Source of the DNA: Geodermatophilus sp. DF01-2
GTDB taxonomy: Bacteria; Actinomycetota; Actinomycetes; Mycobacteriales; Geodermatophilaceae
Direction of reading: 5' to 3'
DNA length: 64,000 bases
Assembly: GCF_004571065.1 (NCBI RefSeq)
Contig: NZ_SPQN01000006.1
Span: 43,369-107,368, forward strand
A model generated the notes under the pieces. The model worked only from the letters and a program-made list of their open reading frames with translations. It was not told the DNA's origin and searched no databases. A program made the translations under genes and the position numbers. Of the stretch, positions 41,724-59,730 are shown in pieces (positions within the stretch are counted from its first letter, which is position 1; each line of letters begins with the position of its first letter).

Positions 41724-42578
41724 GTGCGACTGACGACGCTACGGCTGGATGGCGCGGAGCCCGGGGCGCTGGTGCGCCCGGGCGGCGCGGTGCCGCTGCC
41801 TGCGCTCAACGAGCGCTGGAGCACCGACTGGCCGGTCACCGTGCAGGAGCTGCTCGAGCGCGGCCGGGTCGGGGAGCTGCGCGACTGGGTGGCCGGGCAG
41901 GACGCCGGCCGGCTCGACGGGTTGGCCCTGCCGCAGGACCGGTTGGTGTACGCGCCGCTCTACCGCCGGCCGCGCAAGATCTGGGGCATCGGGCTGAACT
42001 ACGTCGAGCACGCCGCCGATCTGTCGGAGAAGGCGCCGTCGACCGAGCCGGCGAGCTTCCTCAAGCCCGACACCGCGATCATCGGCCCGGGCGACCCGAT
42101 CCGGATCCCGCCGCAGTCGCAGCGCACCACCGCCGAGGGCGAGCTGGGCGTGGTCATCGGCCGGGAGTGCAAGGACGTCGACGAGGCCGACGCGCCCTCG
42201 GTGGTCGCCGGGTTCACCACGATCGTGGACATGACCGCCGAGGACATTCTCGAGAAGAACCCGCGCTACCTCACCCGCTCGAAGAGCTTCGACACCTTCT
42301 TCAGCTTCGGCCCCGAGCTGGTGACCGTCGACGAGGTGCCCGACGTCGACGCCCTCGAGGTGGCCACGATCCACAACGGGCAGGAGCACCGGCGCAACGT
42401 CGTCTCCAACATGACCTTCCGGCCGTGGTGGCTGGTGGCGTTCCACTCGCGGGTGATGACCCTGCTACCCGGCGACGTCATCTCCACCGGCACGCCGGGT
42501 GCGGTGCACATCCGCTCCGGCGACACCGCCGGTGTGCAGATCACCGGCTTCCGCGACCTCACCAACCCCGTGGCCTGA
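41724..42578 (+). CDS. Fumarylacetoacetate hydrolase family protein (copy 1)
   Basis: Protein of 284 aa. The FAH C-terminal catalytic domain is present: KIWGIGLNYVEHAADL, EPASFLKPDTAIIGPGDPI, EGELGVVIGRECKDVDE (Glu metal ligands), RSKSFDTFFSFGPELV (Lys) and LPGDVISTGTPGAV. Such enzymes hydrolyse C-C bonds of diketo acids, decarboxylate oxaloacetate or hydrate 2-oxo-pentenoates. The extra N-terminal 70 residues match the usual non-catalytic domain. GTG at 41724 with GAGAGGA upstream. Confidence 0.91.
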   Translation: MRLTTLRLDGAEPGALVRPGGAVPLPALNERWSTDWPVTVQELLERGRVGELRDWVAGQDAGRLDGLALPQDRLVYAPLYRRPRKIWGIGLNYVEHAADLSEKAPSTEPASFLKPDTAIIGPGDPIRIPPQSQRTTAEGELGVVIGRECKDVDEADAPSVVAGFTTIVDMTAEDILEKNPRYLTRSKSFDTFFSFGPELVTVDEVPDVDALEVATIHNGQEHRRNVVSNMTFRPWWLVAFHSRVMTLLPGDVISTGTPGAVHIRSGDTAGVQITGFRDLTNPVA

Positions 42579-42609
42579 GCGGCCCCCCGACACGACGGAG
42601 CGCACACCG

Positions 42610-43398
42610 ATGGACCTCGAACTGACCGGCCGGGTCGCCCTGGTCACCGCCGCCTCCAAGGGCCTGGGCCGCGCCACCGCGACGCAGCTCGCCGCCGAGG
42701 GCGCGAAGGTGATGATCTCCAGTCGCGGGGAGGAGCAGCTGGCGAAGACCGCGACGGAGATCGCCGGAGCGACCGGCGCGCAGGTCGAGTACTGCGCCGC
42801 GGACGTCGCCGACGCCGCCGACCTGGCGCGGCTGGTGGAGCAGACGCAGCAGCGCCTCGGCGGGATCGACGTGCTGGTGAACAACGCCGGAGGGCCGCCG
42901 CCCGGCGGGTTCGACGCACTGGACGACGACAGGTGGTACCTGGCGCACGACCTGAACCTGATGAGCACGGTGCGGCTGTTCCGGGCGGTGCTGCCGCACA
43001 TGCGCGAGCAGAGATGGGGCCGGATCGTCACGATCGCGTCGTCGTCGATCAAGCAGCCGATCGAGAACCTGCTGCTGTCGAACACCTACCGGGTGGCGCT
43101 GCTGGGGCTGGCGAAGTCCCTGGCGGTCGAGTTCGCCCCCGAGGGCGTGCTGATCAATACCGTGGGCCCCGGCCGGATCGCCACCGACCGCGTCGCCGGC
43201 CTCGACGCCAACCGCGCCGAGAAGGCCGGCATCTCCGTCGAGGAGGTGCGCGCGCAGGCGGAGAAGGCGATCCCGCTGGGTCGCTACGGCACGGCGGAGG
43301 AGTTCGCGAAGGTCGTCACCTTCCTCGCCTCGGGCGCGAACACCTACACGACCGGCCAGAACTTCCTGGTCGACGGCGGCATGGTCAAGGCGATCTGA
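42610..43398 (+). CDS. SDR family oxidoreductase with altered active site (BKR-like)
   Basis: Protein of 262 aa with TAASKGLGRATATQLAAEGA (cofactor loop), [18 protein letters not shown] and VTIASSSIKQPIENLL (Ser). The usual Tyr-x3-Lys is replaced by LLSNTYRVALLGLAKSLA, lacking Lys at the expected place. This is typical of a subgroup of 3-oxoacyl-reductase-like SDRs whose activity is unclear. The C-terminal GxxNxLVDGG (GQNFLVDGGMVKAI) is normal. It lies between two FAH-family genes, so the operon may treat a dicarboxylic or aromatic-derived keto acid. Confidence 0.88.
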   Translation: MDLELTGRVALVTAASKGLGRATATQLAAEGAKVMISSRGEEQLAKTATEIAGATGAQVEYCAADVADAADLARLVEQTQQRLGGIDVLVNNAGGPPPGGFDALDDDRWYLAHDLNLMSTVRLFRAVLPHMREQRWGRIVTIASSSIKQPIENLLLSNTYRVALLGLAKSLAVEFAPEGVLINTVGPGRIATDRVAGLDANRAEKAGISVEEVRAQAEKAIPLGRYGTAEEFAKVVTFLASGANTYTTGQNFLVDGGMVKAI

Positions 43399-44279: not shown

Positions 44280-44960
44280 TCAGCTGCGCACGGGCAGTCC
44301 CAGAGACTGCGCCCACAGCCTCGTCATCGTCGCCACCAGGCGCTCCTCCTCGAACCCGCCGTCGAGCACCAGCCAGTAGTGCACCAGCCCGTTGACCATG
44401 GCGACGAGGGCGTGCGCGCTGTACTCGGCGTCGAGGTCGGCGGCGACCAGGCCGTCGCGCTGCAGCTGCTCGATGCTGTGCCGCACGCGGCCGACCATCC
44501 GTTCCCGCGCTGCCTGGCGCAGGGCCCGCACCTCCGGGTCGAACGTGGTCACCTGCTCGAACAGCGCCATGAGCGCGGTGTTCTGCAGGTACATGGCGAC
44601 GAACCGGCGGTTGGCCCGCTCGATGCGGTGCACCGCGGTCTCCTCGGGCCGGCCGTCCGGGGGGCCGTCCTCGCCGCGGGTGCCCATCGAGGCGTAGAGC
44701 TCGTCCATCGTCTCGGCGAGCAGCGCCCGGAAGACGGCGGTCTTGGAGCCGAAGTAGGTGTAGAAGCTGCCGTGCGCCACGCCGGCCGCCGCGGAGATGT
44801 CGGTGACCCGGGCCTCGAGGAAGCCGTCGCGCTCGAACACCTCGCGGGCGGCGGCCAGCAGCCGGGCCCGCATCCGGCGGCCGCGCTCGGTCGTCGGGAG
44901 GGCGGCCGGGACGGGCCCGGCCGGCCCGCTCGCCGGTTCCGATGCTGGGGGCACGGACAC
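44280..44960 (-). CDS. TetR-family transcriptional regulator
   Basis: Protein of 226 aa. After a flexible N-terminus of about 22 residues, the HTH domain spans residues about 26-75 (MRARLLAAAREVFERDGFLE, then VTDISAAAGVAHGSFYTYFG). The ligand-binding helical domain follows (FVAMYLQNTALMALFEQVTT and MVNGLVHYWLVLDGGF). The HTH type is common among repressors of acyl-CoA metabolism. It diverges from the acyl-CoA synthetase-selenoprotein operon with a 24-bp palindrome just before its own start, so it very likely represses that operon and itself. Confidence 0.93.
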   Translation of the reverse strand: MSVPPASEPASGPAGPVPAALPTTERGRRMRARLLAAAREVFERDGFLEARVTDISAAAGVAHGSFYTYFGSKTAVFRALLAETMDELYASMGTRGEDGPPDGRPEETAVHRIERANRRFVAMYLQNTALMALFEQVTTFDPEVRALRQAARERMVGRVRHSIEQLQRDGLVAADLDAEYSAHALVAMVNGLVHYWLVLDGGFEEERLVATMTRLWAQSLGLPVRS

Positions 44961-44974
44961 CTCCTGGCCCTGTT

Positions 44975-44998
44975 GTTGACATCGACGTCGGTGTCAAC
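44975..44998. promoter_or_regulatory. 24-bp near-perfect palindrome, probable TetR operator
   Basis: Half-sites GTTGACA (44975-44981) and TGTCAAC (44992-44998) flank the self-complementary core CGACGTCG (44983-44990). Only the pair 44982/44991 breaks the symmetry. The left arm also provides TTGACA, a perfect -35 box for the synthetase operon, with TTAGCT 17 bp on as -10. Binding of the TetR dimer here would block polymerase. Confidence 0.75.
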
Positions 44999-45004
44999 TT
45001 AGCT
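44976..45004 (+). promoter_or_regulatory. Predicted sigma-A-type promoter for the synthetase-selenoprotein operon
   Basis: TTGACA at 44976-44981 and TTAGCT at 44999-45004 are separated by 17 bp, the optimal spacing, and lie 46 bp before the ATG at 45050. The -35 box is embedded in the left half-site of the TetR palindrome, as in many repressible promoters. Confidence 0.5.
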
Positions 45005-45049
45005 GCTGTCCAGCCCACCTGTCGTCCCTCCGAGGAGGCGTTCGCCCCG

Positions 45050-47194
45050 ATGACCGCGCCGACGACGGACCTGCACGACGACGGGCTGCAGGCGCTGCTG
45101 CGGCCCCGGGGGATCGCGCTGCTCGGCATCTCGGGGCGGTCAGAGAACCTGATGTCCCGGCCGCTGCGCTACCTGGTCGAGCACGGCTACGAGGGCGGCA
45201 TCTACCCGGTCAACCCAAACTACGACGAGCTGGTCGGGCAGCGCTGCTACCCGACGCTGGCCGACGTCCCGGGCCCGGTCGACCTGGTGCTCGTGCTGGT
45301 CGCCGCCGACCGGGTGGAGGACGCGATCCGGCAGTCCGCCGCGGTCGGCGCCAAGGCCGCCGTCGTCTACGCCTCCGGGTTCGCCGAGGTCGGTCCGGAG
45401 GGAGTGGCCCTGCAGCAGCGGCTGGCGGCGGTGGCGCGGGACACCGGCGTCCGCGTCGTCGGCCCGAACTGCCAGGGCTTCCTCTACGCGCCCACCGGCG
45501 TGGTGGCCACCTTCACCGCCGCCGCCGACCGGCCGCTGACCTCCGACAGCGGGGTGGCCTACGTCGGGCAGAGCGGCGCCGTCGGCGGCTCGGTGCTCGA
45601 CCTGGCCACCGACATGGGGCTGGGCCTGGCGGCGTGGTTCAGCACCGGCAACCAGGCCGACCTCGATCTTTCCGAGGTGTCGATGCACCTGCTGGCCGAC
45701 CCGACGGTGCGGGTGCTGATGCTCTACGTGGAGGCCACCGGCGACGGCGCGGCCTACGCCGAGCTGGCCCGCCGCGCGCAGGAGGCCGGCAAGTCCCTGG
45801 TGGTGCTGCGCTCGGGCCGTTCCAGCGCCGGGCGCCGGGCGGTGGCCAGCCACACCGGCTCGATGCTCGGCGACGACGTCGCCTTCGTGCTCACCTCGCA
45901 GAAGTACGGCGTGGTGCTGGTCGACGACATCGACGAGCTGCTCGCGGTCGCCGCGGTACTGGCCGCCGGCAGGCCGGCGGAGGGGCCGCGGGTCGCCGTC
46001 GTCACCACCTCGGGCGGGGCCGGCAGCCTGGCCGCCGACCAGTGCGAGGACGTCGGCCTGCAGCTGCCCGAGCTGTCGGCCGCGACCCAGGCGCGGCTGC
46101 GCCCGCTGATCCCGGCCTTCGGCGCCCTGGCCAACCCGGTCGACGTCACCGCGCAGCTGTTCAACCGGGGCGCGCACGCCTTCGGCGACGTCTGCCGGAT
46201 CATCGCCGAGGACGACGCGGTCGACGTCGTCGCCGTCCTGGTGACGATGGTCGTCGGGGACGCCGGCGCCCGGCTGGCCGAGGACCTCGTCACGACCGCC
46301 GCCCAGCTGTCCTGCCCACTGCTGGTCGGGTGGATCGCCGGGCAGGAGCTCACCGTCGAGGGCCGCCAGGTGTTCCGCGAGGCCGGCGTCCCGGTGTTCG
46401 GCTCGGTCGGCGACCTGGCCCGCGTCGCCGCGCGGCTGGCCCCGCCGCGGCACCGGGGCACCCCCCCGCCGCTGCCCGCGGCGCCCGACGTCCCGGCCGG
46501 CGAGGTGCGCGCGCTGCTCGAGGCCCCGGTGGTGGACGGCGCGGCGCTGCTGCGGGCGATCGGCATCGCGCAGCCGTCGTCCACGCTCGTGACCACCCCG
46601 GAGGCGGCGCGCGAGGCGGTCGCCGCGCTCCCCGGCCCGGGCGTGCTCAAGCTGGCCGCCGCGGACCTGGCGCACAAGAGCGAGGTCGGCGGGGTGCGGG
46701 TCGGCGTCGGCCCCGACGAGGCCGCCGCCGTCTTTTCCGAGCTCATGGACGCCGCGCAGCGGCACCACGTCCCCGGCGTGGAGGGCGTGCACGTGCAGGA
46801 GCTCGTCCCGCCGGGCACCGAGCTCATCCTCGCCGTGACCGCCGGGCGGGACGGCTTCCCGCCGGTGGCCACGGTCGGCCTGGGCGGGGTCACCACCGAG
46901 CTGTACCGCGACCTCGCCTCGGCGCTGGCGCCGGTGGAGCCTGCGGAGGCGTGGGCCATGCTGCGCCGCCTGCGCGCCTGGCCGCTGCTGGCCGGCTTCC
47001 GCGGCGCCGAGCCCGCCGACGTGCCGGCCGCGGTCGACGCGGTGGTGCGGCTGTCGCAGGCCGCGGTGGCCGCCGGCGACCGGCTGGCCGAGTTCGAGGT
47101 CAACCCGCTCATCGTCGCGCCGCGCGGGCGGGGCGCCACCGCCGTCGACGTCCTGGTGCGCACCACCGGCTCGCGGGAGCCGGTCGGCGAGTAG
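45050..47194 (+). CDS. Acetate-CoA ligase family protein (ADP-forming acyl-CoA synthetase, alpha-beta fusion)
   Basis: Protein of 714 aa that should couple acyl-CoA formation to nucleotide triphosphate hydrolysis by way of a phosphohistidine. Parts in order: CoA-binding domain (LLRPRGIALLGISGRSENLM), succinyl-CoA-ligase-like domain (GVAYVGQSGAVGGSVLDLAT, SHTGSMLGDD with the presumed phospho-His), and a C-terminal ATP-grasp domain from about residue 490 (VLKLAAADLAHKSEVGGVRVG, FEVNPLIVAPRG). GAGGAGG lies 13 nt before the ATG. First gene of the TetR-controlled operon; it probably activates the acid processed by the dehydrogenases behind it. Stop is TAG. Confidence 0.9.
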   Translation: MTAPTTDLHDDGLQALLRPRGIALLGISGRSENLMSRPLRYLVEHGYEGGIYPVNPNYDELVGQRCYPTLADVPGPVDLVLVLVAADRVEDAIRQSAAVGAKAAVVYASGFAEVGPEGVALQQRLAAVARDTGVRVVGPNCQGFLYAPTGVVATFTAAADRPLTSDSGVAYVGQSGAVGGSVLDLATDMGLGLAAWFSTGNQADLDLSEVSMHLLADPTVRVLMLYVEATGDGAAYAELARRAQEAGKSLVVLRSGRSSAGRRAVASHTGSMLGDDVAFVLTSQKYGVVLVDDIDELLAVAAVLAAGRPAEGPRVAVVTTSGGAGSLAADQCEDVGLQLPELSAATQARLRPLIPAFGALANPVDVTAQLFNRGAHAFGDVCRIIAEDDAVDVVAVLVTMVVGDAGARLAEDLVTTAAQLSCPLLVGWIAGQELTVEGRQVFREAGVPVFGSVGDLARVAARLAPPRHRGTPPPLPAAPDVPAGEVRALLEAPVVDGAALLRAIGIAQPSSTLVTTPEAAREAVAALPGPGVLKLAAADLAHKSEVGGVRVGVGPDEAAAVFSELMDAAQRHHVPGVEGVHVQELVPPGTELILAVTAGRDGFPPVATVGLGGVTTELYRDLASALAPVEPAEAWAMLRRLRAWPLLAGFRGAEPADVPAAVDAVVRLSQAAVAAGDRLAEFEVNPLIVAPRGRGATAVDVLVRTTGSREPVGE

Positions 47195-47261: not shown

Positions 47262-47999
47262 GTGGGACAGATCCAGTTGGAGCGGCACGGCGGCGTCGCC
47301 GTGTTCACGGTCGACTCGCCCGAGGTCAAGAACGGGCTCACCCCGGAGATGGGGCTGCAGCTGTCGGAGCTCTGCGACGAGGTCGACGCCGACCCGGCGA
47401 TCGGCGCGGCCGTCGTCCGCGGCGCCGGCGGCACCTTCTGCTCGGGTGCCGACCGCCGGCGCTGGACGCCGGGCAGCGACCAGGCCGAGGACAAGACCTA
47501 CAAGGAGCTCGGCGCGGTCTACACCGCCTTCCGCCGGGTGGGCACCCTGCAGGTGCCGACGATCGCCGCGGTGCGCGGCGCCGCGGTCGGCGCCGGGATC
47601 AATCTGGCGCTCTCCACCGACCTGCGGATCGTGTCCGAGAACGCCCGGCTGCTCGCCGGGTTCCTGCGGATCGGTCTGCACCCGGGCGGCGGCTACTTCA
47701 CGATCAGCTCCCGGACGGCGGGTCGCGAGGCCACCGCCGCGATGGGCCTGTTCAGCGAGGAGGTCGACGGCGTCCGCGCCGCCGAGATCGGCCTGGCCTG
47801 GAAGGCGGTGCCCGACGACCAGGTCGAGGACCTCGCCCTGGAGCTGGCCGGCCGCGCCGCCAAGGACCCGGAGCTGGCCCGCGAGGCGGTCCGCTCCTTC
47901 CGCACCGAGGCCGGCCCGCCCGGGATCGGCTGGGAGGCCGCGCTGCACTTCGAGCGGGCCACCCAGATGTGGTCCCAGCGGCGGCGCGAGACCGCCTGA
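47262..47999 (+). CDS. Enoyl-CoA hydratase/isomerase family protein
   Basis: Crotonase-fold protein of 245 aa. GGTFCSGADRRRW is the first oxyanion-hole segment, and RGAAVGAGINLALSTDLRI the second. FLRIGLHPGGGYFTISSRTA lacks the Glu common at the start of this helix in classical hydratases, so isomerase, hydrolase or lyase activity is also possible. GTG at 47262 with GAGAGG upstream. 67 bp after the synthetase and 61 bp before the dehydrogenase; a long hairpin lies in the latter gap. Confidence 0.88.
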   Translation: MGQIQLERHGGVAVFTVDSPEVKNGLTPEMGLQLSELCDEVDADPAIGAAVVRGAGGTFCSGADRRRWTPGSDQAEDKTYKELGAVYTAFRRVGTLQVPTIAAVRGAAVGAGINLALSTDLRIVSENARLLAGFLRIGLHPGGGYFTISSRTAGREATAAMGLFSEEVDGVRAAEIGLAWKAVPDDQVEDLALELAGRAAKDPELAREAVRSFRTEAGPPGIGWEAALHFERATQMWSQRRRETA

Positions 48000-48060: not shown

Positions 48061-49194
48061 ATGCAGTTCGCCCCCACCGTGCTCACCCCGGCCGAGGAGG
48101 CGCTGCGCGCGGAGGTGCGCGAGTTCCTCGCCGCCGAGCTGCCCGCCGACCACCGCCCCGCGCTCGGCTTCGCCGGCCGGCACGACCCGCACTTCTCCCG
48201 CACGCTGGCCGAGCGCGGCTGGGTCGGCATGGCGATCCCGCCCGAGTACGGCGGGCACGGGCGCAGCGCCGTCGACCGGTTCATCGTCGCCGAGGAGCTG
48301 CTCGCCGCCGGCGCTCCCATCGGGGCCCACTTCGTCGCCGACCGGCAGACCGCGCCGGCGCTGCTGCACTTCGGCACCGAGGAGCAGCGCCGGCGGTTCC
48401 TCCCCGGCATCGCCGCGGGCGAGGTCTACTTCTCGCTCGGCATGAGCGAGCCCGACTCCGGCTCCGACCTCGCCTCGGTGCGCACCCGCGCCACCCGGAC
48501 CGACGGCGGCTGGACGGTCACCGGCACCAAGGTGTGGACCAGCGAGGCCCACAACAACCACTTCTTCGCAGTCCTCTGCCGGACCTCCCCGATGGAGGAG
48601 GGCAGCAAGCACGCCGGCCTCTCCCAGCTGATCGTCGACCTGCACGCGCCCGGGGTCACCGTCTCGCCGATCCCGTACCTCGACGGCAGCCACCACTTCA
48701 ACGAGGTGGCGCTGGAGGAGGTGTTCGTGCCCGGCGACATGGTGCTCGGCGAGCTGGGCAGCGGCTGGCGGCAGGTGACCAGCGAGCTGGCCTACGAGCG
48801 CAGCGGCCCCGACCGCTGGCTCTCGACCTTCCCGGTGCTGCGCGAGTGGCTGCGCGAGCGCCCCGATCTCACCGACGCCGACGCCGCCGTCCTCGGCCGG
48901 CTGGCCGCCCGCGCCCGCGCGATCCGGCACCTGTCGCTGTCGGTCGCCCGCTCGCTCGACGCCGGGGAGGCGCCGGCGGTCGAGGCGGCGTTGGTCAAGG
49001 AGGTCGGCACCCGCTTCGAGCAGGACCTCGTCGAGGCGCTGCGCGACGCCGCCGAGACCGAGCTCGACCAGGGCTCGGGATCGCTGTTCCGGGCGCTGCT
49101 CGCCGAGGCCGTGCTGACCTCGCCGTCGTACACGCTGCGGGGCGGCACCACCGAGATCCTCCGCTCCGTCGCCGCGAAGGGGTTGGCCTCGTGA
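48061..49194 (+). CDS. Acyl-CoA dehydrogenase, first of a probable heteromeric pair
   Basis: FAD-domain protein of 377 aa. Motifs are VAIPPEYGGHGRSAVD-like (AIPPEYGGHG), SLGMSEPDSGSDLASVRT, WTVTGTKVWTSEAHNNHFFA, and the C-terminal YTLRGGTTEILRSVAAKGL. The RGGT end replaces the EGT/catalytic Glu of MCAD-like enzymes. This is usual in actinobacterial dehydrogenases that work as alpha2beta2 complexes with a neighbouring paralogue (FadE/ChsE type). The next gene encodes such a partner. ATG at 48061 with GGAGGG upstream. Confidence 0.9.
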   Translation: MQFAPTVLTPAEEALRAEVREFLAAELPADHRPALGFAGRHDPHFSRTLAERGWVGMAIPPEYGGHGRSAVDRFIVAEELLAAGAPIGAHFVADRQTAPALLHFGTEEQRRRFLPGIAAGEVYFSLGMSEPDSGSDLASVRTRATRTDGGWTVTGTKVWTSEAHNNHFFAVLCRTSPMEEGSKHAGLSQLIVDLHAPGVTVSPIPYLDGSHHFNEVALEEVFVPGDMVLGELGSGWRQVTSELAYERSGPDRWLSTFPVLREWLRERPDLTDADAAVLGRLAARARAIRHLSLSVARSLDAGEAPAVEAALVKEVGTRFEQDLVEALRDAAETELDQGSGSLFRALLAEAVLTSPSYTLRGGTTEILRSVAAKGLAS

Positions 49195-49267: not shown

Positions 49268-50335
49268 GTGAGCGACGACCGCACGATGCTCACCGAGGTC
49301 GCGACCGGCCTCTTCCGCGACCTGTGCACGCCCGAGGACGTCGTCGCCGCGGAGCCGACCGGCTGGAGCGAGCGGCTGTGGACGGCCCTGAGCGAATCCG
49401 GCTTCCCCGCGGTATCGGTGCCCGAGGAGGCCGGCGGCTCCGGCGGGGACGTCGCCGACGCCTGCGCGCTGCTCACCGTCGCCGGCCGGTTCGCCGCCCC
49501 GGTGCCGCTGGCCGAGACCGGGCTGCTCGGCGGCTGGGCGCTGGCCGCGGCCGGGCTGGAGCTGCCCGAGGGCCCGGTGTCGGTGGCCGTCGACCGGCCG
49601 GACGACGCCGTCGAGCTCACCGGCGGGCGGTTCTCCGCGCGGTTGTCCCGCGTGCCGTGGGGCAGGCGGAGCACCCGGGTGGTCGCGTTCGCCGAGAGCG
49701 GCGGGCAGCGGTTCGTCGTCTCGGCGCCGACCGCGGCCGCGACCGTCACGCCCGGCCGCAACCTCGCCGCCGAGCCGCGCGACACCCTCGTGTGGGACGA
49801 CGTCGAGCTCGCCGACGATGCCCTGGCGCCGGCCCCGACCGGGGTGGACACCGAAGCGCTGCGGCTGCGGGGGGCGCTGGCCCGCTCCGCGCAGATCGCC
49901 GGCGCGCTGGCACGGGTGGCCGAGCTGACCGTCCGCTACACCGGCGAGCGACAGCAGTTCGGCCGCGCAGTGGCCCGCTTCCAGGCGGTGCAGGCGCACC
50001 TGGTGACGATCGCGGAGGAGGCGGAGCTGGCCCGGCTCGCCGTCGAGGTGGCCGCGCTCAACGCCCGACCCGACCCGTCGTTCCCCGACGTCGCGGCGGC
50101 CAAGAGCGCGGCCGGCGAGGCGGCGACGATCGCGGCGCGGGCGTCCCACCAGGCGCACGGCGCGATCGGCATGACCAAGGAGTACGAACTGGGGCAGCTG
50201 TCCCGTCGGCTGTGGTCGTGGCGCGACGAGTTCGGCGGCGAGCGGCACTGGAGCCGGGAGCTGGGCCGGCAGCTGGCCGCCGAGGGTGCCGACGCGCTGT
50301 GGCCCCGGATCTCCACCGGGCTGGTGGGCGCGTGA
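49268..50335 (+). CDS. Acyl-CoA dehydrogenase-like protein, second of the pair
   Basis: Protein of 355 aa, diverged and slightly shorter. Recognisable parts are FPAVSVPEEAGGSGGDVADA, a reduced middle domain, RYTGERQQFGRAVARFQAVQAHLVTIAEEAELA (C-terminal helical domain), and AHGAIGMTKEYELGQLSRRLWSWRDEFG. It keeps the fold of acyl-CoA dehydrogenases but lacks the normal FAD/substrate loop motif. Paired with the preceding gene it should form a heterotetramer. GTG at 49268; the flavoprotein gene overlaps its stop by 4 bp (GTGA). Confidence 0.85.
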   Translation: MSDDRTMLTEVATGLFRDLCTPEDVVAAEPTGWSERLWTALSESGFPAVSVPEEAGGSGGDVADACALLTVAGRFAAPVPLAETGLLGGWALAAAGLELPEGPVSVAVDRPDDAVELTGGRFSARLSRVPWGRRSTRVVAFAESGGQRFVVSAPTAAATVTPGRNLAAEPRDTLVWDDVELADDALAPAPTGVDTEALRLRGALARSAQIAGALARVAELTVRYTGERQQFGRAVARFQAVQAHLVTIAEEAELARLAVEVAALNARPDPSFPDVAAAKSAAGEAATIAARASHQAHGAIGMTKEYELGQLSRRLWSWRDEFGGERHWSRELGRQLAAEGADALWPRISTGLVGA

Positions 50336-51753
50336 CCACCGACTGGGACGTCGTCGTCATCGGCGCCGGCATCGCGGGGTTGACCGCCGCGCGGGTCGCC
50401 GCGGAGCGGGGCCTGCGAGTGGTGGCCCACGACCGGATGAGCCCCGGCGGGCAGCTGGTGAACCTCACCGCGCTGCACGATTTTCCGGTGCCGTCGGGGC
50501 CGGAGCTGATGACCACCCTCACCGCCGCGGCCGAGGCGGCCGGCGTCCGGATCGGATACGCGGAGGTGACCCGGGTGCGCCCGGGGACGCCGGTGCGGCT
50601 GGAGACGTCCGAGGGCGAGGTGACCGCGGAAGTGGTGGTCGTCGCGGCCGGGCTCGGCCCCGGGCGGCTGGGGCTGCCCGGGGAGGAGGCGCTCGTCGGC
50701 CGCGGCATCTCCACCTGCGCCGGCTGCGACGGGCCGCTGTTCCGCGGCCGCCCGGTCGCCGTCGTCGGCGACGACGAGTGGACGGCGGAGGAGGCGCTCG
50801 AGCTGGCCGGCTACGCGTCGGCGGTGACCGTGCTGGTGCCGGGCTCCCCCCGCTGGTCGGCGGAGCGGGCCGAGCGGCTGGCGGCGGTCGAGACGGTCGA
50901 GGTGGTGACCGGTGCGACGGTGACCGCGCTGCGCGGCGAGGGCGTGCTGTCCGGCGTCGCCGTCCGTACCGGGGACGCGGAGCGCGAGCTGGCGGTCGCC
51001 GGGGTGTTCCCGTTCGTCGGCCGCCGCGGGCCCGAGGGCCTGGTCGACGGGCTGCCGACCGACGAGGACGGCCGGCTGGTCCCCGACGACGAGGTCCCCG
51101 GGCTGCTGGTGGCCGGCGACGCGCGGGCCGGCGCGGAGCAGTCACTGGCCGCCGCCGAGGCCGACGGGCGCGCCGCCGGGGAGGCCGCCGCGCAGGCGCT
51201 GGCGGCCACGGCCGGGTCGCTGCGGATCGTCGACCCGACCTACGGCCTGCCGCCGGAGGAGGACGACGCAGCCGTCGTCGCCGGGAGCACGGCGACCTGG
51301 ACCGACGTCGCGCTCTTCACCAACTCCAAGCCGAACGCGACCGAGCTGCTGCGCGGACTGGGCGGGCGGCTGCAGGCGCACTGGGAGCTGCCGGAGCTGG
51401 GCTTCGCGGCCAAGGACAACGCCTCGGTGCCGGCCGACAAGGACACCATCGACTGGCTGTCGCAGCGCTTCAAGATGGTGCTGGTGGCGGTCGGCGACTA
51501 GGGCTCGTGCTCGTCGTGGAGTCTCCACGACTCGGTGGAACTGGAGAAGCGCGGCGTCGCGGCACCGCTGGTGGTGACCGAGACGTTCCTGCCGCTGGTG
51601 CAGGCGCAGGCCCAGGCGCGGCGGGTGACCCCGCGGTTCCTGGTGGTGCCGCACCCGGTCGGCGGGCTGAACGAGGCGGAGCTGGCCGGCCGGATCGACG
51701 GCGCGGCGGCGGAGCTGCTGCGGATGGCCGACGAGGCGAGGGGGCGCCCGTGA
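50332..51753 (+). CDS. Thioredoxin-reductase-like flavoprotein fused to UGSC selenoprotein domain; Sec encoded by in-frame TAG
   Basis: Predicted 473-aa selenoprotein. Residues 1-295 are a thioredoxin reductase-like module: VVVIGAGIAGLTAARVA (FAD), GGQLVN, the redox pair C129-A-G-C132 in CAGCDGPLF, and VAGDARAGAEQSLAAAEADG. Residues about 297-473 are a UGSC-family domain: LFTNSKPNATELLRGLG, then SQRFKMVLVAVGD, TAG at 51499-51501, and GSCSSWSLHDSVELEKRGVA on to TGA at 51751. The TAG stands exactly where U of the UGSC motif belongs (residue 390). The coding frame continues 84 codons, a SECIS-like hairpin follows, and the next gene overlaps the distal TGA by 4 bp. Geodermatophilus and Blastococcus are known to use UAG for Sec. 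Without recoding the protein would end at residue 389. U390/C393 is presumably reduced by its own flavin domain. Confidence 0.9.
51513..51531 (+). promoter_or_regulatory. bSECIS-like hairpin after the TAG Sec codon
   Basis: GTCGTGGA (51513-51520) pairs perfectly with TCCACGAC (51524-51531) around the loop GTC; opening one A-U pair gives AGUCU. The loop starts 19 nt after the TAG and begins with G. This fits the bacterial SECIS rule: apical loop 16-37 nt from the Sec codon, with G among its first two bases. It should bind the Sec-specific elongation factor SelB. Confidence 0.8.
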
Positions 51754-52793
51754 CTGCGGGAGTGCTCGACCTGCCCGGGGTCACGGAGGAGAGCTGGCAG
51801 GAGGAGGCGTACCGCCGCGGCTGGGGCGACGGGCTGCCGCTGGTGGCCCCGACCCCGGCCCGGGTGGAGGCGGCGCTGGCCGCGCTCGACGGCATCGACC
51901 TGGAGTTGGGGCCGCTGCCGCCGTCCGGGCTGGCGCCGAGCCGGGAGAGCTTCGCAGCGAACGCGGTGATGGCCGGCTGCCGGCCCGCGGACCTGCCGGT
52001 GGTGCTCGCCGCCGTCCGCGCGCTGCAGGCGCCCGAGTACAACCTGCACGGCGTGCTGGCCACGACCCACCCGTGCGCGCCGATGGTCGTGGTCAACGGC
52101 CCGGTGCGCGGCGAGCTGGGGATCAACTCGAGCGCCAACTGCCTCGGGCAGGGCACGCGGGCCAACGCCGTCATCGGCCGGGCGGTGCAGCTGGTCACCA
52201 CGCACATCGGCGGTGCACGGCCGGGGGTCATGGACCGGGCGACGCAGGGCGGGCCGGCGAAGTACTCGTTCTGCTTCGGGGAGAACGAGGAGGAGAGCCC
52301 GTTCCCGCCCTTCTCGGTGCGCCGCGGCTACGCGCCGGGGGAGTCGGTGGTGACGGTCGCGGCCACCGAGGGTCCGCACAACGTCAACGACCACGGCGGG
52401 ACGACGGCCGAGGACCTGCTGCTCACCATCGCCGGGACGATGGCCCAGCCGGGGTCGAACAACGTGTACGTAAAGGGGCCGCACTTCCTGGTACTGGGCC
52501 CGGAGCACGCGGCGACGTTCGCCCGCGACGGGTGGACGGCGGAGGCGGTGCGGGACGCGCTGTGGGAGCGGGCGCGGATCCCGGTGTCGCAGGTGTCGGA
52601 GGCCAACCGGCGCCAGTTCGAGGACTGGGGCGTGGTACCCGACGGCGACGCGTTCACCGTCAGCACCGGCCCGGAGATGCTGCACGTGCTGGTGGCCGGG
52701 GGAGCGGGGAAGCACTCGGTGTGGATCCCGTCGTTCGGCGCGACCGCGGCGGTGTCGCGCCCGGTGCCCCGCTCGCCCGTGAACCGTGCCTGA
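51750..52793 (+). CDS. Uncharacterised protein, paralogue 1, linked to the UGSC selenoprotein
   Basis: Protein of 347 aa that I do not recognise by function. GTG at 51750 overlaps the selenoprotein stop, so it is translated together with it. Features are RGWGDGLPLVAPTPARVEA near the start, MAGCRPADLPVVLAAVRAL, YNLHGVLATTHPCAPMVVVN, SANCLGQGTRANAVIGRAVQ, GGARPGVMDRATQGGPAKYS and FCFGENEEE. It is soluble, with no signal peptide or membrane segment. The Cys residues (AGCRP, HPC, ANC, SFC) could take part in redox or metal chemistry. The next gene encodes a homologue with the same motif order, so the two probably form a heteromer working with the selenoprotein. Confidence 0.85.
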   Translation: MTAGVLDLPGVTEESWQEEAYRRGWGDGLPLVAPTPARVEAALAALDGIDLELGPLPPSGLAPSRESFAANAVMAGCRPADLPVVLAAVRALQAPEYNLHGVLATTHPCAPMVVVNGPVRGELGINSSANCLGQGTRANAVIGRAVQLVTTHIGGARPGVMDRATQGGPAKYSFCFGENEEESPFPPFSVRRGYAPGESVVTVAATEGPHNVNDHGGTTAEDLLLTIAGTMAQPGSNNVYVKGPHFLVLGPEHAATFARDGWTAEAVRDALWERARIPVSQVSEANRRQFEDWGVVPDGDAFTVSTGPEMLHVLVAGGAGKHSVWIPSFGATAAVSRPVPRSPVNRA

Positions 52794-53805
52794 CCTGCCG
52801 CTGTTCGGTCCGGACGCCGACCCGGCGGAGGCGCTGGCCGACCTGCTCGCCGCCGGGCTCGGCGACGGGCTGCCGGTGGTGCCGCCGTCGGCGGCCCGGC
52901 TGGCTGCCATGGTGGCCGGGGTCGGCGGTCCGGACGCCGTCCTCGGCCAGGTGCCGCCGCTGTTCGGTGACCTGACCGTGCGGGCGGTGGCCTGGTACGC
53001 GGTGCTGGCCGGGTGCCGGCCGGCCGAGCTGCCGGTGGTGGTGGCCGCGGCGCGGGCCGCGCTGGAGCCGGAGTTCAACCTGCTCGGCATCGCGACCACG
53101 ACCGGATCGCCCGCGGTGGCGGTGCTGGTGCACGGGCCGGTCGCGTCGTCGCTGGGGCTGACGCCCGTCGGCGGGCTGGGGCCGGGAGCGCGGGCCAACG
53201 CCTGCGTCGGGCGGGCGGTGGCGCTGGCGCTGGCCGGCATCGGCGGCGCGCGGGCCGGCCTGACCGACATGGCGACGATCGGACAGCCGGGGAAGTACAC
53301 GTTCTGCACCGCCTCGCTGCCGGGGCCGTTCCCGCCCCTGGCCGCTGGGGACGCGGTGACCGTCGTCGGGGCGAGCGGGGTGGTGGAGGTGCTGCCCGCC
53401 TCCGGGTACCGGACACCCGCCGAGGTGCTCGCGCCCGCCGCCGCGGCGTTGGCCGGGGTCGCGCTGGCCGCGGGTGACCCGACCCGCTTCCGGGACGGCG
53501 AGCAGTTCCTGCTGCTGCCGCCCGAGCTGGCCGGGTTCCTCGACGCGCACGGCTGGGCCGGGGAGCGAGCGGCGGAGTTCCTGTTCGCGGAGGGCAACGC
53601 CCTGCTGGCCGCGGCTGCCGCACGGCTGTCCGAGGTGTCCTCGGCCTACGCGGCGGGTGACCTGCGGGTGGCCGCCTCGGCGGACGACGTCCGGGTCGTC
53701 GTCACCGGCGGTCTGGGCGTCAAGATGGCCCTGTTGCCCACCTGGATGGGCGGCACCCGCTCGGTCACAGCCGCCGTCCGCGCGTTGCATGACCTGACCC
53801 CGTGA
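52786..53805 (+). CDS. Uncharacterised protein, paralogue 2, linked to the UGSC selenoprotein
   Basis: Protein of 339 aa homologous to the preceding gene product: LGDGLPVVPPSAARLAAMVA, LAGCRPAELPVVVAAARAAL, FNLLGIATTTGSPAVAVLVH, GARANACVGRAVALALAGIG, GGARAGLTDMATIGQPGKYT and FCTASLPGPFPP. Two Cys of paralogue 1 (in HPC and ANC) are not kept at the same place, while AGCRP and the FC after the KYT/KYS motif are shared. The C-terminal part continues with VRVVVTGGLGVKMALLPTWM. GTG at 52786 overlaps the upstream gene by 8 bp. Last gene of the operon. Function unknown. Confidence 0.83.
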   Translation: MPDLPLFGPDADPAEALADLLAAGLGDGLPVVPPSAARLAAMVAGVGGPDAVLGQVPPLFGDLTVRAVAWYAVLAGCRPAELPVVVAAARAALEPEFNLLGIATTTGSPAVAVLVHGPVASSLGLTPVGGLGPGARANACVGRAVALALAGIGGARAGLTDMATIGQPGKYTFCTASLPGPFPPLAAGDAVTVVGASGVVEVLPASGYRTPAEVLAPAAAALAGVALAAGDPTRFRDGEQFLLLPPELAGFLDAHGWAGERAAEFLFAEGNALLAAAAARLSEVSSAYAAGDLRVAASADDVRVVVTGGLGVKMALLPTWMGGTRSVTAAVRALHDLTP

Positions 53806-54498: not shown

Positions 54499-55698
54499 TC
54501 ATCCCCAGGCGCCGACATGTCGGCAGGACAGCGCGGGGTCGACCAGCGAGAGCCGCACCCGCTCCTGCTCCAGCCGCACCGATGGTCCGAGCGCGTCGGT
54601 GACCAGGTCGGTGTAGAGCTCGGCCTCGTCGTCGGTCAGCCGGTCGAGCCGTTCGGCGGTCGGACTGGCCTCGCGGACCCACTGGGTCGGGTGGGCGAGC
54701 AGTGTGGCGCGGTCCATGAGCAGGGAGCGGGCGTGCGGGAAAGCGGCGCGCAGCCGGTCGAGGATGGCGAAGCCGTGGGTGTCGATGTCGCCCCAGTAGC
54801 GGAGATCGCGGTCGACCAGCCAGCGCAGCGGCGCCAGTCGGCCGGCCGCGTAGCCGCCGCCGAAAACCACCGCGGTGCCGGGCCGAGCCGGTATCGCCAG
54901 GTAGGTGATCTCGTTCTCCACGACCACGACGGTGTCCGCAGCCAGCGGCGCGCCCGTCAGCTCCTCGACGCGGACGGCGATCTCGGTGAACGGCCCGCCG
55001 TGTCCGGGAGGGAGCCGCACGCGGACGTGGTCGGGCTTGCTGCGGAATCCGTGCCGGCCGGCGAAGTCCGACCGCGGACGGCCGGCATCGATCCGTTCCG
55101 GGGAGAGCTGGCGTTCCAGCAGATCGGTCAGCAGGCCGCGGTTCGCCTCGACGAACTTGGTGTCGACCCCGGGGACGTCGATCTCGCGCAGGTAGCTGCC
55201 CGGGCGGGCCTCCCGGTCGATCCAGAGCACGGTGGTGAGCAGCAGGTCCCAGTCGTCCGCGGCGACGAGGACGCGCATCGGGTGCGCGGTCATCCACTGG
55301 GCCAGCGCCGGCGCCCGCGTACGGGTTGCGGCCAGCCGGGCGTCGAACGCCTCGACGTCACGGCGCACGCCGAGCACGGCGACCAGGTCGGTCCAGCTGT
55401 CGACGGCGACGCGCGCCGGTAGCCGGTTGACCCCGATCAGTCGACCACCGACCGGCGCCTCCGCCACCCGCACGCCCCGAGGGACCGCCGTCCAGCCGGC
55501 CCGCCAGGCGCGGACCTCGTCGAAGCGGTCGCCGATGTCGCGCGGCCCGGGTCCGCGGATGGGCAGGTCCAGCGGCGCGAAGGGCTGGCCCGAGGCGTGG
55601 GCGGTGAGGAAGTCGCCGCGGTCCCACCGGCGGCGCAGCCGGTCGCGGACGCCGGGCCACGTCGTCCACTCCGGCCGTTGCTGCGCCCGCGCCGGCAC
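54499..55698 (-). CDS. jetD: Wadjet anti-plasmid system protein JetD (DUF3322/DUF2220, Toprim nuclease)
   Basis: Protein of 399 aa. It is the nuclease subunit that cuts circular DNA extruded by JetABC. The N-terminal DUF3322 arm starts WPGVRDRLRRRWDRGDFLTA and continues RAWRAGWTAVPRGVRV. The C-terminal Toprim-like domain has VVENEITYLAIP (acidic Glu261/Glu263) and YWGDIDTHGFAILDRL (Asp304/Asp306), the paired acidic metal-binding sites. GTG start one base after the jetC stop; last gene of the operon. Length is normal. Confidence 0.9.
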   Translation of the reverse strand: MPARAQQRPEWTTWPGVRDRLRRRWDRGDFLTAHASGQPFAPLDLPIRGPGPRDIGDRFDEVRAWRAGWTAVPRGVRVAEAPVGGRLIGVNRLPARVAVDSWTDLVAVLGVRRDVEAFDARLAATRTRAPALAQWMTAHPMRVLVAADDWDLLLTTVLWIDREARPGSYLREIDVPGVDTKFVEANRGLLTDLLERQLSPERIDAGRPRSDFAGRHGFRSKPDHVRVRLPPGHGGPFTEIAVRVEELTGAPLAADTVVVVENEITYLAIPARPGTAVVFGGGYAAGRLAPLRWLVDRDLRYWGDIDTHGFAILDRLRAAFPHARSLLMDRATLLAHPTQWVREASPTAERLDRLTDDEAELYTDLVTDALGPSVRLEQERVRLSLVDPALSCRHVGAWG

Positions 55699-55699
55699 G

Positions 55700-58600
55700 T
55701 CAGCGTCCGCCGCCGGCGGCCCGGCGCAGCGCCTGCTGCTCGCGGTACTCCTCGATGGTCAGGCTCTGCAGCCGCGAGTAGTTGCCCGCCGGGTTGTCGA
55801 CGAAGCCGACGGCGGCCACGTGCGGCTCGATCACGTGGATCTTCTGCAGCGGCGTGACGATGAGCAGCTGCAGCCCGAGCCGGGTGAACAGGGTGAGCGC
55901 GAAGCGGGTGGACTCGTCGGAGCCGCGGCCGAAGGCCTCGTCGATGACGACGAATCGGAAGGTCTTCGATCGGGCGGCGGCCGGGTCGAGCCGGAACTGG
56001 TAGGCAAGCGAGGCGGCGAGGATGGTGTAGGCGAGCTTCTCCTTCTGCCCGCCGGACTTCCCGCCGGAGTCGCTGTAGGTCTCGTGCTCGGCGTCGTCCT
56101 CCCGCCAGCGCTCCGAGGCGGTGAAGACGAACCAGTTGCGGACGTCGGTGACGAAGCGGGCCCACTGGCGGTCGGTGTCGGCGTGGCCCGGGCGGCCGCG
56201 GAGCCGCTCGACGATCGCCTGCACCTGCAGGAAGCGCTGCTCGGAGTACTGGTCGTCGCCGTCGGCGAGCGCGTCGTCGGTGCAGGCCCGCAGGTCCCGC
56301 TTGAAGTCCTTCACGTCGGGGCGGGGGGTCGGCTGGGAGTCCAGGCGGATGTAGCGGCCGGGGTTGTAGTCGATGTCGACCAGTGAGGCGTTGATGGTGG
56401 CCACCCGCTGGGTGATGAGCTCGGCGCGCCGGTTGAGCTCGGCGAGGAAGCCGGCGATGTCGCGGATGGTGTTCTCGTTCAGGTACTGCTTGAAGGTGGC
56501 CTCGAAGCGGGGCAGGTCGTCGCCGGTCAGCCGGGCGTGCAGGGCCCGGAACTCGCCCGTGGCGGCGATGGAGGCGTCCATCTCGGCGGTCTCGGTGGGG
56601 TGGTCGCGGCGGAAGTCGGCCATCTTCCGCACCAACCGGGTCTCGGCGTTCGCCTGCCGCGTAGCCCGGTGCTCCCGCTCCCGGGTGAGCTGCCGGGAGA
56701 GGGTCTCCTCCAGTGCGTCGACCTCGTCGAGGGAGTCGGGCGGCCCGCCGTCGCCGCGCAGGGCCGCGGCTCGCGCGTCGAGTGCGGCCAGGTGGTCGGC
56801 CGGCACGGAGGCCGCGGCCTCGAGCCGGGCGGCGACGGCGGCGGCCCGCTGTTCGGCCTCGGTCAGTTCGCTGCGGTGCCCGCCGCGCCGCTGTTCGCAG
56901 GCCGACCGCTGCTCGTCGGCGAGCGTGATGGCCTCGCGCACCGCGCCGAGCTCGCGGTCGATCCGGTCCAGCACGCCGGAGGCGGCCAGCAACCGCTCGC
57001 GCTCGGCGGCGAGGTCGGCGATCCGCCGGACGCACGCCTCCCAGTCCAGCTCGGCCCAGCTGTCGAAGACGTCGAGCTTGCTCAGCGTGCGGTCCCGCTC
57101 CGTCGCGGTGTCGTACCCGGCCCGGGTCCGCGTGCGCTCCTCGGCCAGCCGGTTGAGCCGCTCCTGCACGGTCTGCGCCTGGGCGAGCAGCGCCCGGACC
57201 TTGTCCTCGTTGGTCCAGCCGAGCACGTAGGAGCGGCGGTCGTCGATGCGGGTGGCGTCGTTCTTCTCGTGCCGGCCGCCCGGCTCCTTGACCTGACCGG
57301 CGCGGGTGACCGCCTTCGGGGTGCGCTGGAACTCCTCGATGGAGACCACGCACTCGTGGTCGGCCCGCCGGGCGAGCTGGGCCTCGACCCACGACGCCAG
57401 CGGCGAGTCCTTCACCTCCAGCCTGGCGGCCAGCGACCCGGCCGACGGCAGCGCCGGAACGGCGGACATGCGGGCGGGAACGCGGTAGTACACCAGCCGG
57501 GCGCCCAGATGGTGGGCGTCGATCCAGCGGGAAACCACCGGGTAGTGCTCATCAGGCACCAGCAGGGAGAGGGCGAAGCCGCGCAGCAGCCGCTCGGCGG
57601 CGCCCTCCCACTCCCGGTGGGCTTCGCCGACCTGGATCAGCTCGCCGGCGAAAGGGAGCGCGGCACCGGGGACGCCGAGTTCGGTGACCAGCCGCTGCCG
57701 CAGCTCCAGGCTCTGCCGCGGCAGGCTGCTGCTGCGGCCCCGGAGGCTGGCCAGCTCGGCGCGCAGGTCGTCGGACTCGGTGCGCAGGCCGTCCTCGGCG
57801 ACGGCGAGCTCGCTGAGCCGGTTCTGCGCGTCGGCGGCGACGGTCGCCGCGCGCCGGCCGGCCTCGGCGACCTCGGCCCGCCGGGCGGCGAAGGTTCCCT
57901 CGTCGGCGACCGGGTCCAGTCCGGCGGCGGCGAGCAGTCCGGCGAAGGTCGAGGCCTTGGCGCGACGGGCGTCGCGGACCCGCTCCTCGACCGCGACGAG
58001 CTCGTCGATGCGGGCCAGCCGGTCGCCCCCGTGACCCGCGCGCTCGACGATCAGCTGCCCTTCCCGCGAACGGGAGCGGGTGAGGTCGTCGGCGAGCCGG
58101 GCGAGCTCCCGGTCGTCGTCCTCGACCGCCTGGCGCAGCCGCTCGATGCGGCGGGCCAGCAGGCCGGCGCGCAGCCGGGCGGTGTGCACCGGCAACGCGT
58201 CGCGCTGGGCGCCGAGCGCGGCGATCTCGCCACCGAGCCGCTCGTGCGTGTCGGCGTCGGCGAGCAGGGGGCGCAGCTGCTCCAGCTGGCTGCGGGCGCG
58301 GACGACGGATTCGTGCGCCCGGGTCAGGTCGTCGAAGTGGGCGACCAGCCGGTCGATCCAGCCGGCGGCGTCGAACGGCTCCAGCATGTGGCTGCGGACG
58401 AAGCCGTTGAGGTCGCTGACCGCCTTCATCGACACGGTCTGGTGGAACAGCTCGAGCGCCTGCTCGGAGTCGATGCCCAGGCGGCGGCGGTAGTCGCGGC
58501 CGTAGTCGGGGAATGCGCCGAACACGCCGATTCCGGGCTGCTTCCGCAGCCGGCGCCTGAGCGCGGCGACGTCGGTGCCGAAGTCGGCGAAGTCGGCGGC

Positions 58601-59098: not shown

Positions 59099-59730
59099 GG
59101 TGCGCGGCCTCCCTCGTCGTCGGCAGCGGGATCCGGCTCCCCGCGCAGCCCTGCCGCGTAGGCGGCGAGCCGGGCGTCGAAGTCGGCCAGCCACTGGGCG
59201 TCGACGAACGCCTTGAGGATGCGGCGCACCTCCAGCGCGCCGTCCGCCCCCGGGACCCGACGGAGGAAGCCGAGCTCGACGATCTTGGTGATGTGCTGGT
59301 CGACCTGGTCGACGAGGCGGGCCTCGTTGCTGGTGGCCGGCAGGAAGACCCGCAGCATCGCCACGATCTGCTCGCGGGTGAGGACGAGCCGGCTGCCGGC
59401 GTCGGTGGCGTCGAACTCGGCCAGCCGGCGCCGCAGCAGGGCGAGCAGCAGGCTGACGTGGAAGGACAGCGAGCGGCGGGCGACGAGCCGCGGGACGGCG
59501 GGAGCTCCGTCGGGCGCGGCGTCGTCCCGCTGCCGGAGGAAGGCGTAGCCCTCGGCCTCGTCGACCACCGGGACGAGGCCGATGGCGGCCATGTAGTCAC
59601 GCAGCTGGAACTGCAACGGCAGCAGGTGGCGCCACACCTGCTCGTGGGTGTCGCGGTAGACCACGCCCTTCATCAGGGAGGTGGCGACCAGCGGCAGGTC
59701 GAGCTCGGAGCGCGCGGGCGGTGCGGTCAT
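59095..59730 (-). CDS. jetB: Wadjet anti-plasmid system protein JetB (DUF4194)
   Basis: Protein of 211 aa, MukE-like kite subunit. Family segments are SLMKGVVYRDTHEQVWRHLL, FQLRDYMAAIGLVPVVDEAE, GYAFLRQRDD, RLVARRSLSFHVSLLLALLR and VDQHITKIVELGFLRRVPG (winged-helix). ATG at 59730. Its stop overlaps the jetC start. It lies 126 bp after the toxin gene, an unusually long gap for this operon type, where jetA and jetB normally adjoin. Confidence 0.9.
   Translation of the reverse strand: MTAPPARSELDLPLVATSLMKGVVYRDTHEQVWRHLLPLQFQLRDYMAAIGLVPVVDEAEGYAFLRQRDDAAPDGAPAVPRLVARRSLSFHVSLLLALLRRRLAEFDATDAGSRLVLTREQIVAMLRVFLPATSNEARLVDQVDQHITKIVELGFLRRVPGADGALEVRRILKAFVDAQWLADFDARLAAYAAGLRGEPDPAADDEGGRAP

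What the first reader, a model, noticed from the sequence alone, without database searches (positions are those of the whole stretch)
50332..51753. UAG-encoded selenocysteine in a thioredoxin-reductase/UGSC fusion protein
Seen: the flavoprotein frame reaches VAVGD, then TAG (51499-51501), then GSCSSWSLHDSVELEKRG and 70 more in-frame codons to TGA at 51751. UGSC-family proteins have U (or C) exactly at the TAG position. The gene after it overlaps the distal TGA by 4 bp, as expected if ribosomes arrive there. A hairpin at 51513-51531 satisfies the bacterial SECIS rules. Known: UAG-Sec with tRNA-Sec(CUA) was shown experimentally in Geodermatophilus and Blastococcus. Inference: the attached FAD/CxxC module (C129/C132) reduces U390-C393, making a one-chain selenoenzyme. 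The combination of amber Sec with this domain fusion may be undescribed.
Basis: partly seen in the sequence, partly recalled or inferred. Interest (0 to 1): 0.95.

Follow-up and report, generated by a model that had tools for sequence, protein, structure and literature searches.

The report
Amber-coded flavin-selenium fusion enzyme
A Geodermatophilus-like bacterium has a gene with the stop signal UAG exactly where related genes elsewhere have the selenocysteine signal UGA, and it is predicted to read UAG as selenocysteine, which would join a flavin reductase and a selenium protein, separate genes in other bacteria, into one likely electron-passing enzyme that the database entries found show cut short.

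Summary
A TAG at 51499-51501 interrupts an otherwise open frame (50332-51753) joining a thioredoxin-reductase-like flavoprotein to a UGSC domain. The UGSC profile runs across the TAG: 42.8 bits for the part before it, 126.2 when read through. The genome has selA, selB and selD beside one tRNA-Sec gene with anticodon CUA. Its two other UGSC genes and its formate dehydrogenase gene also carry one TAG.

The fusion occurs in 19 of 112 genomes of the family, each with one TAG and a CUA tRNA-Sec. In the ten relatives outside the family where I saw both modules, they are separate genes and the UGSC codon is TGA. A hairpin after the codon is supported by compensatory changes.

Corrections: the flavoprotein lacks the usual NADPH motifs, so 'thioredoxin reductase' is unproven. 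TAG is also an ordinary stop here, and release factor 1 is present. Selenium insertion and electron transfer remain untested. Amber selenocysteine, also in UGSC proteins, was already known; my searches showed no paper on this fusion.

The parts
50332..51753 (+). TrxR-like/UGSC fusion gene, 473 codons with the TAG read as Sec (start GTG, stop TGA)
50332..51216 (+). TrxR-like FAD/CxxC module (residues 1-295; C129, C132)
51217..51750 (+). UGSC domain (residues 296-473; Sec390, C393)
   Evidence: PF24696 126.6 bits when read through
51499..51501 (+). TAG predicted to be decoded as selenocysteine 390
   Evidence: one TAG in 19 of 19 family genomes with the fusion; TGA at the same residue in the relatives outside the family
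51513..51531 (+). SECIS-type hairpin, 8 bp, loop GUC, loop 19 nt after the TAG
51750..52793 (+). partner pA, 347 aa, no Pfam or NCBIfam family; near or fused with UGSC in many bacteria
52786..53805 (+). partner pB, 339 aa, about 36% identical to pA
49268..50335 (+). acyl-CoA dehydrogenase-like gene (acd2), overlaps the fusion gene by 4 bases
48061..49194 (+). acyl-CoA dehydrogenase gene (acd1; start codon inferred)
47262..47999 (+). enoyl-CoA hydratase/isomerase gene (ech)
44942..47194 (+). ADP-forming acyl-CoA synthetase-like gene (acs); ends in an ordinary TAG stop
44283..44960 (-). divergent TetR-type regulator, kept with the operon

Best explanation
The gene encodes a thioredoxin-reductase-like flavoprotein and a UGSC domain in one frame interrupted only by a UAG, which is predicted to be decoded as selenocysteine by the genome's own tRNA-Sec(CUA) and SelB with the help of the hairpin after the codon, so that one 473-residue chain would be made. 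Shown by sequence: the open frame, the conserved UAG, the CUA tRNA-Sec, selABD, the co-varying hairpin, and the split UGA-coded version in other bacteria. Inferred: SelB binds the hairpin and competes with release factor 1, so some ribosomes stop at residue 389 and some continue. Inferred: electrons pass from FAD to the C129/C132 pair and then to the Sec390/C393 pair, the only four Cys/Sec residues of the chain. Inferred: the reduced selenol works with partners pA and pB as a reductase on an organic acid or its CoA ester, since the operon also encodes a CoA synthetase, an enoyl-CoA hydratase and two acyl-CoA dehydrogenases. The electron donor is probably not NADPH, because the NADPH motifs are replaced.
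For: tRNA-Sec: Rfam 66.6 bits, cut-off 47, anticodon CTA, between selA and selD; selB 279, selA 415 and selD 387 bits, all above curated cut-offs.

Codon: one TAG in 19 of 19 family fusions, all 19 with a CUA tRNA-Sec. UGSC in 112 family genomes: 95 matches, 72 with one TAG, 23 with no stop, 0 with TGA. UGSC in a sample of 396 genomes of the phylum: 44 matches outside this genome, 34 with one TGA, 10 with no stop (2 of these below the cut-off), 0 with TAG. Seven genomes with TGA-coded UGSC were tested for tRNA-Sec; all seven have one, with UCA.

Hairpin: 97.2% of cells paired over 44 sequences, 5 of 8 pairs with compensatory changes, 0 of 500 shuffles as high. A model of it finds the three UGSC genes of this genome at E < 1e-13, next match 0.008; the three were in its training set.

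Constraint after the TAG.

Against: No protein-level data. RF1 is present and TAG ends about 5 of 47 likely genes, including selB and acs, so full-length yield could be low. The hairpin's z-score is weak in a longer context, and 3 of the 44 aligned sites (L042, L046, one of L047) fold otherwise by minimum energy. The formate dehydrogenase gene, also with a TAG, is not found by the hairpin model. The NADPH motifs are missing, so the electron source is unknown. pA shows no clear fold match, so the substrate is a guess. Sec390/C393 in 40 of 40 rows is largely by construction, since rows were chosen by the stop-GSC signature; Cys versions exist.
Confidence: 0.82

Rival explanations
1. The TAG is a true stop: the product is a 389-residue flavoprotein and the rest of the UGSC domain is dead sequence.
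For: The 115 listed database proteins (one of them this window's own) have lengths of 300-411 and cover at most 53% of residues 295-473, as if ended at the TAG. RF1 is present, and TAG is used as a stop elsewhere in the genome.
Against: 83 open codons to a TGA at the same place in 14 of 14 loci, with purifying selection about equal to upstream. The UGSC profile and the invariant motif continue across the codon. Same codon position as TGA in the unfused relatives.
Confidence: 0.04
2. Both products are made on purpose: termination gives a flavoprotein without its selenium site and Sec insertion gives the full chain, with the ratio set by selenium supply.
For: RF1 and tRNA-Sec(CUA) must compete. 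The upstream module alone matches complete TrxR chains. In other bacteria the two modules are separate proteins.
Against: The TAG lies inside the UGSC domain, so the short form would carry half a domain (residues 296-389). No measurement.
Confidence: 0.25
3. UAG is read as another amino acid, such as pyrrolysine or a suppressor-inserted residue.
For: ARAGORN labels the CTA tRNA as tRNA-Pyl.
Against: The tRNA exceeds the Rfam tRNA-Sec cut-off (66.6 against 47), sits between selA and selD and folds with a long variable arm, whereas tRNA-Pyl has a three-nucleotide variable arm (PMC7609411 passage). The residue is TGA-coded or Cys in relatives. A search for pylS was not run.
Confidence: 0.02
4. 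Sec is inserted, but the flavoprotein part does not reduce the Sec/Cys pair; the fusion only keeps two subunits together and another donor serves the UGSC domain.
For: NADPH motif GxGxxA lost in 15 of 15 fusion rows; of 6 unfused TrxR-like rows only L030 keeps it, and none shows HRRxxxR in the aligned stretch. Only 19 of the 54 family genomes with UGSC have the fusion, so UGSC can work without it.
Against: FAD motif and CxxC kept. The TrxR-like gene stays next to UGSC where unfused. The four Cys/Sec residues form just two redox pairs.
Confidence: 0.25

Closest known systems
UAG-coded selenoproteins of Geodermatophilaceae (Mukai et al. 2016, as described in PMC5330540; Mukai itself not held)
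   Same: tRNA-Sec with anticodon CUA; FDH and UGSC-motif selenoproteins with UAG; an AhpC with UAG in Blastococcus saxobsidens (passages seen).
   Different: Those passages name no flavoprotein fusion. Whether Mukai's UGSC gene is this fusion could not be read; B. saxobsidens DD2 does have a short-form entry of it (P0101).
UGSC family (PF24696, NF041046) and the UGSC/Unknown_1 fusions of marine metagenomes (PMC2398784, passages seen)
   Same: UGSC domain with U-x-x-C; fusion to a domain of unknown role. pA is fused to UGSC in this genome's second UGSC gene, so Unknown_1 may be pA (not tested).
   Different: Here the added module is a TrxR-like flavoprotein at the N-terminus, and the codon is UAG, not UGA.
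NTRC, a TrxR-thioredoxin fusion of cyanobacteria and chloroplasts (PMC9025218, passages seen)
   Same: A TrxR-type flavoprotein with its redox partner on its C-terminus.
   Different: The partner is a UGSC selenoprotein domain, not thioredoxin; the NADPH motif is missing here.
FFTR and DDOR, NADPH-independent TrxR relatives (PMC9025218, passages seen)
   Same: FAD motif and CxxC kept, NADPH motif GxGxxA absent.
   Different: No selenoprotein domain; the ferredoxin or second-flavin features were not tested here.
Mammalian TrxR selenoproteins (recalled)
   Same: FAD/CxxC flavoprotein passing electrons to a Sec/Cys pair on the same or partner chain.
   Different: Different TrxR class and Sec at the C-terminal tail; a functional parallel only.

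Membership tests
Amber (UAG) selenocysteine recoding | tRNA-Sec with CUA anticodon in the genome | tested here: met
   66.6 bits, cut-off 47, anticodon cta
Amber (UAG) selenocysteine recoding | selA, selB, selD present | tested here: met
   415, 279 and 387 bits, all above curated cut-offs
Amber (UAG) selenocysteine recoding | UAG at the Sec position of conserved selenoprotein families | tested here: met
   3 UGSC genes (codon position seen); FDH-alpha with one TAG in its N-terminal part (exact residue not checked)
Amber (UAG) selenocysteine recoding | Sec found at UAG in the protein | not testable with these tools
   needs mass spectrometry or selenium-75 labelling
Bacterial SECIS (rule recalled: loop 16-37 nt after the codon, G among the first two loop bases) | hairpin geometry and covariation | tested here: met
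   loop GUC 19 nt after the TAG; covariation 0 of 500 shuffles
UGSC family PF24696 | score above Pfam cut-off 25 | tested here: met
   126.2 bits read through
UGSC_fam NF041046 (equivalog) | score above curated cut-off 125 | tested here: not met
   106.4 bits: a relative, not a member of that equivalog
Thioredoxin-disulfide reductase TIGR01292 | score above curated cut-off 343 | tested here: not met
   176.6 bits
Thioredoxin-disulfide reductase TIGR01292 | NADPH motifs GxGxxA and HRRxxxR (second motif recalled) | tested here: not met
   GDDEWTA and VPGSPRW in their places
Thioredoxin-disulfide reductase TIGR01292 | FAD motif GxGxxG and CxxC | tested here: met
   CxxC in 21 of 21 rows; GxGxxG visible in the rows that reach it
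FFTR/DDOR type | TrxR fold without NADPH motif | tested here: met
FFTR/DDOR type | ferredoxin donor or second flavin | not testable with these tools
   needs enzymology or a structure
Pyrrolysine system | pylS present | not tested

The most novel reading that the evidence does not exclude
The operon encodes a new kind of selenium-dependent reductase: an NADPH-independent flavoprotein and an amber-coded selenol on one chain, delivering electrons to a two-subunit partner (pA/pB) that attacks an organic acid or CoA-bound substrate, in the way that glycine and proline reductases work in anaerobes, but in an actinobacterial CoA-linked catabolic pathway. The fusion arose once from the split UGA-coded genes, along with a switch of the Sec codon to UAG.
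Probability: 0.35. Interest if true: 0.85.

Novelty: new variant of a known kind. Interest (0 to 1): 0.7.

Why it matters
It gives a natural before-and-after pair: the same two proteins as separate UGA-coded genes elsewhere and as one UAG-coded gene here, with matching tRNA-Sec anticodons in every genome where I read them (19 CUA, 7 UCA). That makes codon switching of selenocysteine, and competition with release factor 1, directly testable in culturable bacteria. The fusion links the unexplained UGSC selenoproteins to a flavin electron source and to two uncharacterised partner families. It also shows that databases hold this protein cut off at its predicted active site: the 115 entries listed all have the short form.

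Tried and rejected

My mistakes: I translated pA from 51752, the wrong frame; repeat it correctly and also find no family. In some searches the AhpD-like gene of L114 was one base off; searches are correct. In one search I entered handle G690 in place of G689; G690 is no UGSC genome and has no tRNA-Sec match, so I count seven genomes, not eight. In the tree row L175 is unrelated sequence caught by a short pattern, and row L167 is a fusion labelled as unfused; neither was removed. The named-genome scan used peptide patterns that include HDSVELEK, so it favours Sec forms and misses Cys forms. The hairpin model was built from sites that include this genome's three, and the genome search scored 150 of 7441 candidates.

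Literature: the listings of the searches show no title on a TrxR-UGSC fusion; I looked into five papers for UGSC or UAG passages and saw none there. The library holds open-licence papers only, and Mukai 2016 is not in it, so 'undescribed' is not established.

Full report
What is there. The window lies in a 4.45-Mb draft genome (199 contigs, 99.7% complete), closest to Geodermatophilus by its relatives. The frame 50332-51753 holds 473 codons with one TAG at codon 390 and a TGA at the end. Residues 1-295 match FAD/CxxC disulphide reductases; residues 296-473 match the UGSC family, whose other members have a TAG, TGA or Cys codon at that place. The profile hit grows from 42.8 to 126.2 bits when the TAG is read through. 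There is no in-frame ATG, GTG or TTG between residues 281 and 365, so the whole UGSC domain has no obvious start of its own.

The decoding system. Rfam tRNA-Sec hits one gene clearly (66.6 bits, contig C133), with anticodon CTA; the one other match over the cut-off (48.8 bits) is a tRNA-Ser. The gene sits between selA and selD, with selB next to selA; all three proteins pass curated cut-offs. ARAGORN names it tRNA-Pyl because of the CUA anticodon, but it folds with a long variable arm. Release factor 1 is present and TAG ends about 5 of 47 likely genes by a rough composition filter, selB and the operon's first gene among them. So UAG keeps both meanings, and context must decide.

The hairpin. 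An 8-bp stem with loop GUC starts 11 nt after the TAG. Over 44 distinct UGSC sites (19 TAG, 25 TGA) the stem is paired in 97.2% of cells, with compensatory changes in 5 of 8 pairs; no shuffle of 500 and no slid register comes near. Relatedness can inflate the shuffle test, as the tool warns. A covariance model finds the three UGSC genes in this genome far above anything else (E 1.8e-14 or better, then 0.008); those three were part of its training set, and the formate dehydrogenase site is not among its hits. Weaker points: z is -0.5 in a 71-nt context, synonymous re-draws reach the observed energy in 75 of 1000, and 3 of the 44 sites fold otherwise by minimum energy.

Conservation. In 14 named Geodermatophilus, Blastococcus and Modestobacter loci the site is TAG, the 83 codons after it are open, and a TGA follows. 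Selection after the TAG is about as strong as before it (uncorrected proportions). In the family the fusion is in 19 of 112 genomes, in 5 of 12 genera, each with one TAG; all 19 have tRNA-Sec CUA (G000; G005, G020, G021; fifteen). UGSC genes in general are in 54 of 112: 72 of 95 matches with one TAG, 23 without a stop, none with TGA. In a sample of 396 genomes of the phylum, 34 of 44 matches outside this genome carry one TGA, 10 none, and none TAG. Seven genomes with TGA-coded UGSC all have a tRNA-Sec with UCA. Of 30 family tRNA-Sec loci read, the best-scoring ones, 22 are CTA and 8 TCA; seven of the TCA loci belong to three genera known here only from fragmented genomes, and one to G059.

Origin of the fusion. 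Outside the family the modules are separate: stops and a new start lie between them in L027-L030, different frames in L033, L034, L036 and G335, the reverse order in G149, and opposite strands in L032. L031 and L035 show no TrxR-like match in the DNA held. In the UGSC tree the fusions form one clade (100/99), sister to 11 unfused TGA sequences (97/86), with unfused TGA-coded G335 outside both (94/73 for the join). TAG sequences appear in four places among TGA or Cys forms, which fits several UGSC lineages changing codon in this family. The bootstrap had not settled, and the tool flags several long branches as unsure.

Operon. acs, ech, fusion, pA and pB are found in 14 of 14 family loci; tetR in 13 (not L017), acd1 and acd2 in 13 (not L026). 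In the 10 loci L027-L036, pA and pB follow UGSC in all; in L037-L049 pA is found near it in 12 of 13. pA has 3903 matches among the 7994 candidates scored, and the 120 shown carry no Pfam domain; it has no Pfam or NCBIfam hit. Its Cys175 is kept in 25 of 25 aligned rows, Cys109 and Cys131 in 24. Neighbours in other bacteria include a tripartite tricarboxylate transporter (L028) and a CoA transferase (L034).

Known and new. UAG Sec with CUA tRNA-Sec, in FDH and UGSC proteins of this family, and an AhpC case are in print (PMC5330540, passages); natural recoding of other codons to Sec is also reviewed in PMC10778597 (passages). UGSC fusions with another domain are in print (PMC2398784, passages). 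A review of 2026 (PMC13188914, passages) mentions UAG only as an engineering tool and a stop, in the places seen. I found no description of the TrxR-like fusion in the searches listed under Tried and rejected. Verdict: real, a new variant of a known kind, with protein-level proof missing.

Noticed in passing
G059, L114:1169-2154 (contig C17) and L115 (contig C11): One genome of the same genus seems to hold two selenocysteine codes: native selABD with tRNA-Sec CUA and TAG in UGSC and FDH, plus, in a low-GC, transposase-bearing contig end that grades into normal GC, a tRNA-Sec with UCA about 300 bp from an AhpD-like gene with in-frame TGA in a CFYU motif (TIGR01926 112.6 bits read through, cut-off 81.8) and a hairpin after it (weak z, -0.8). 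tblastn with this genome's selA and selB found none on that contig. Assembly contamination is not excluded.
   Followed up: partly
L010, L011 (own genome contigs C101, C153): Two more UGSC genes with one in-frame TAG each; in L010 the UGSC domain is fused to a C-terminal pA-type domain (49% identical to pA).
   Followed up: yes
own genome contig C101:42214-45237: Formate dehydrogenase alpha subunit gene with one in-frame TAG; the N-terminal pieces that the family listing shows have one TAG too (listing cut short).
   Followed up: partly
G079 contig C12:812469-814946: An FDH-alpha piece (profile 208-1004) with one TGA inside, in a genome whose tRNA-Sec is CUA; perhaps a broken copy.
   Followed up: no
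G149, L136 (contig C2:295982-296887): The separate TrxR-like gene of this TGA-coding genome has one TGA inside its match as well; not examined.
   Followed up: no
window 54502-62067 (-): Complete Wadjet type I set JetD, JetC, JetB, JetA next to the operon.
   Followed up: no
window 36565-43395: Likely sugar-acid type catabolic genes: RraA-like, DUF1932, FAD oxidase (DAO), DHDPS-like, FAA hydrolase, short-chain dehydrogenase, with an MFS transporter.
   Followed up: no
L009:7284-9047 (-): The selB gene itself ends in TAG, the codon that its product would help recode.
   Followed up: no
P0163 (Pseudonocardia): A pA protein whose N-terminus looks like the end of a UGSC domain, as if the record starts after an unread Sec codon.
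   Followed up: no
L038, L040: Metagenome bins titled Bordetella parapertussis carry TGA-coded UGSC genes and group with a betaproteobacterial bin; the titles look doubtful.
   Followed up: no
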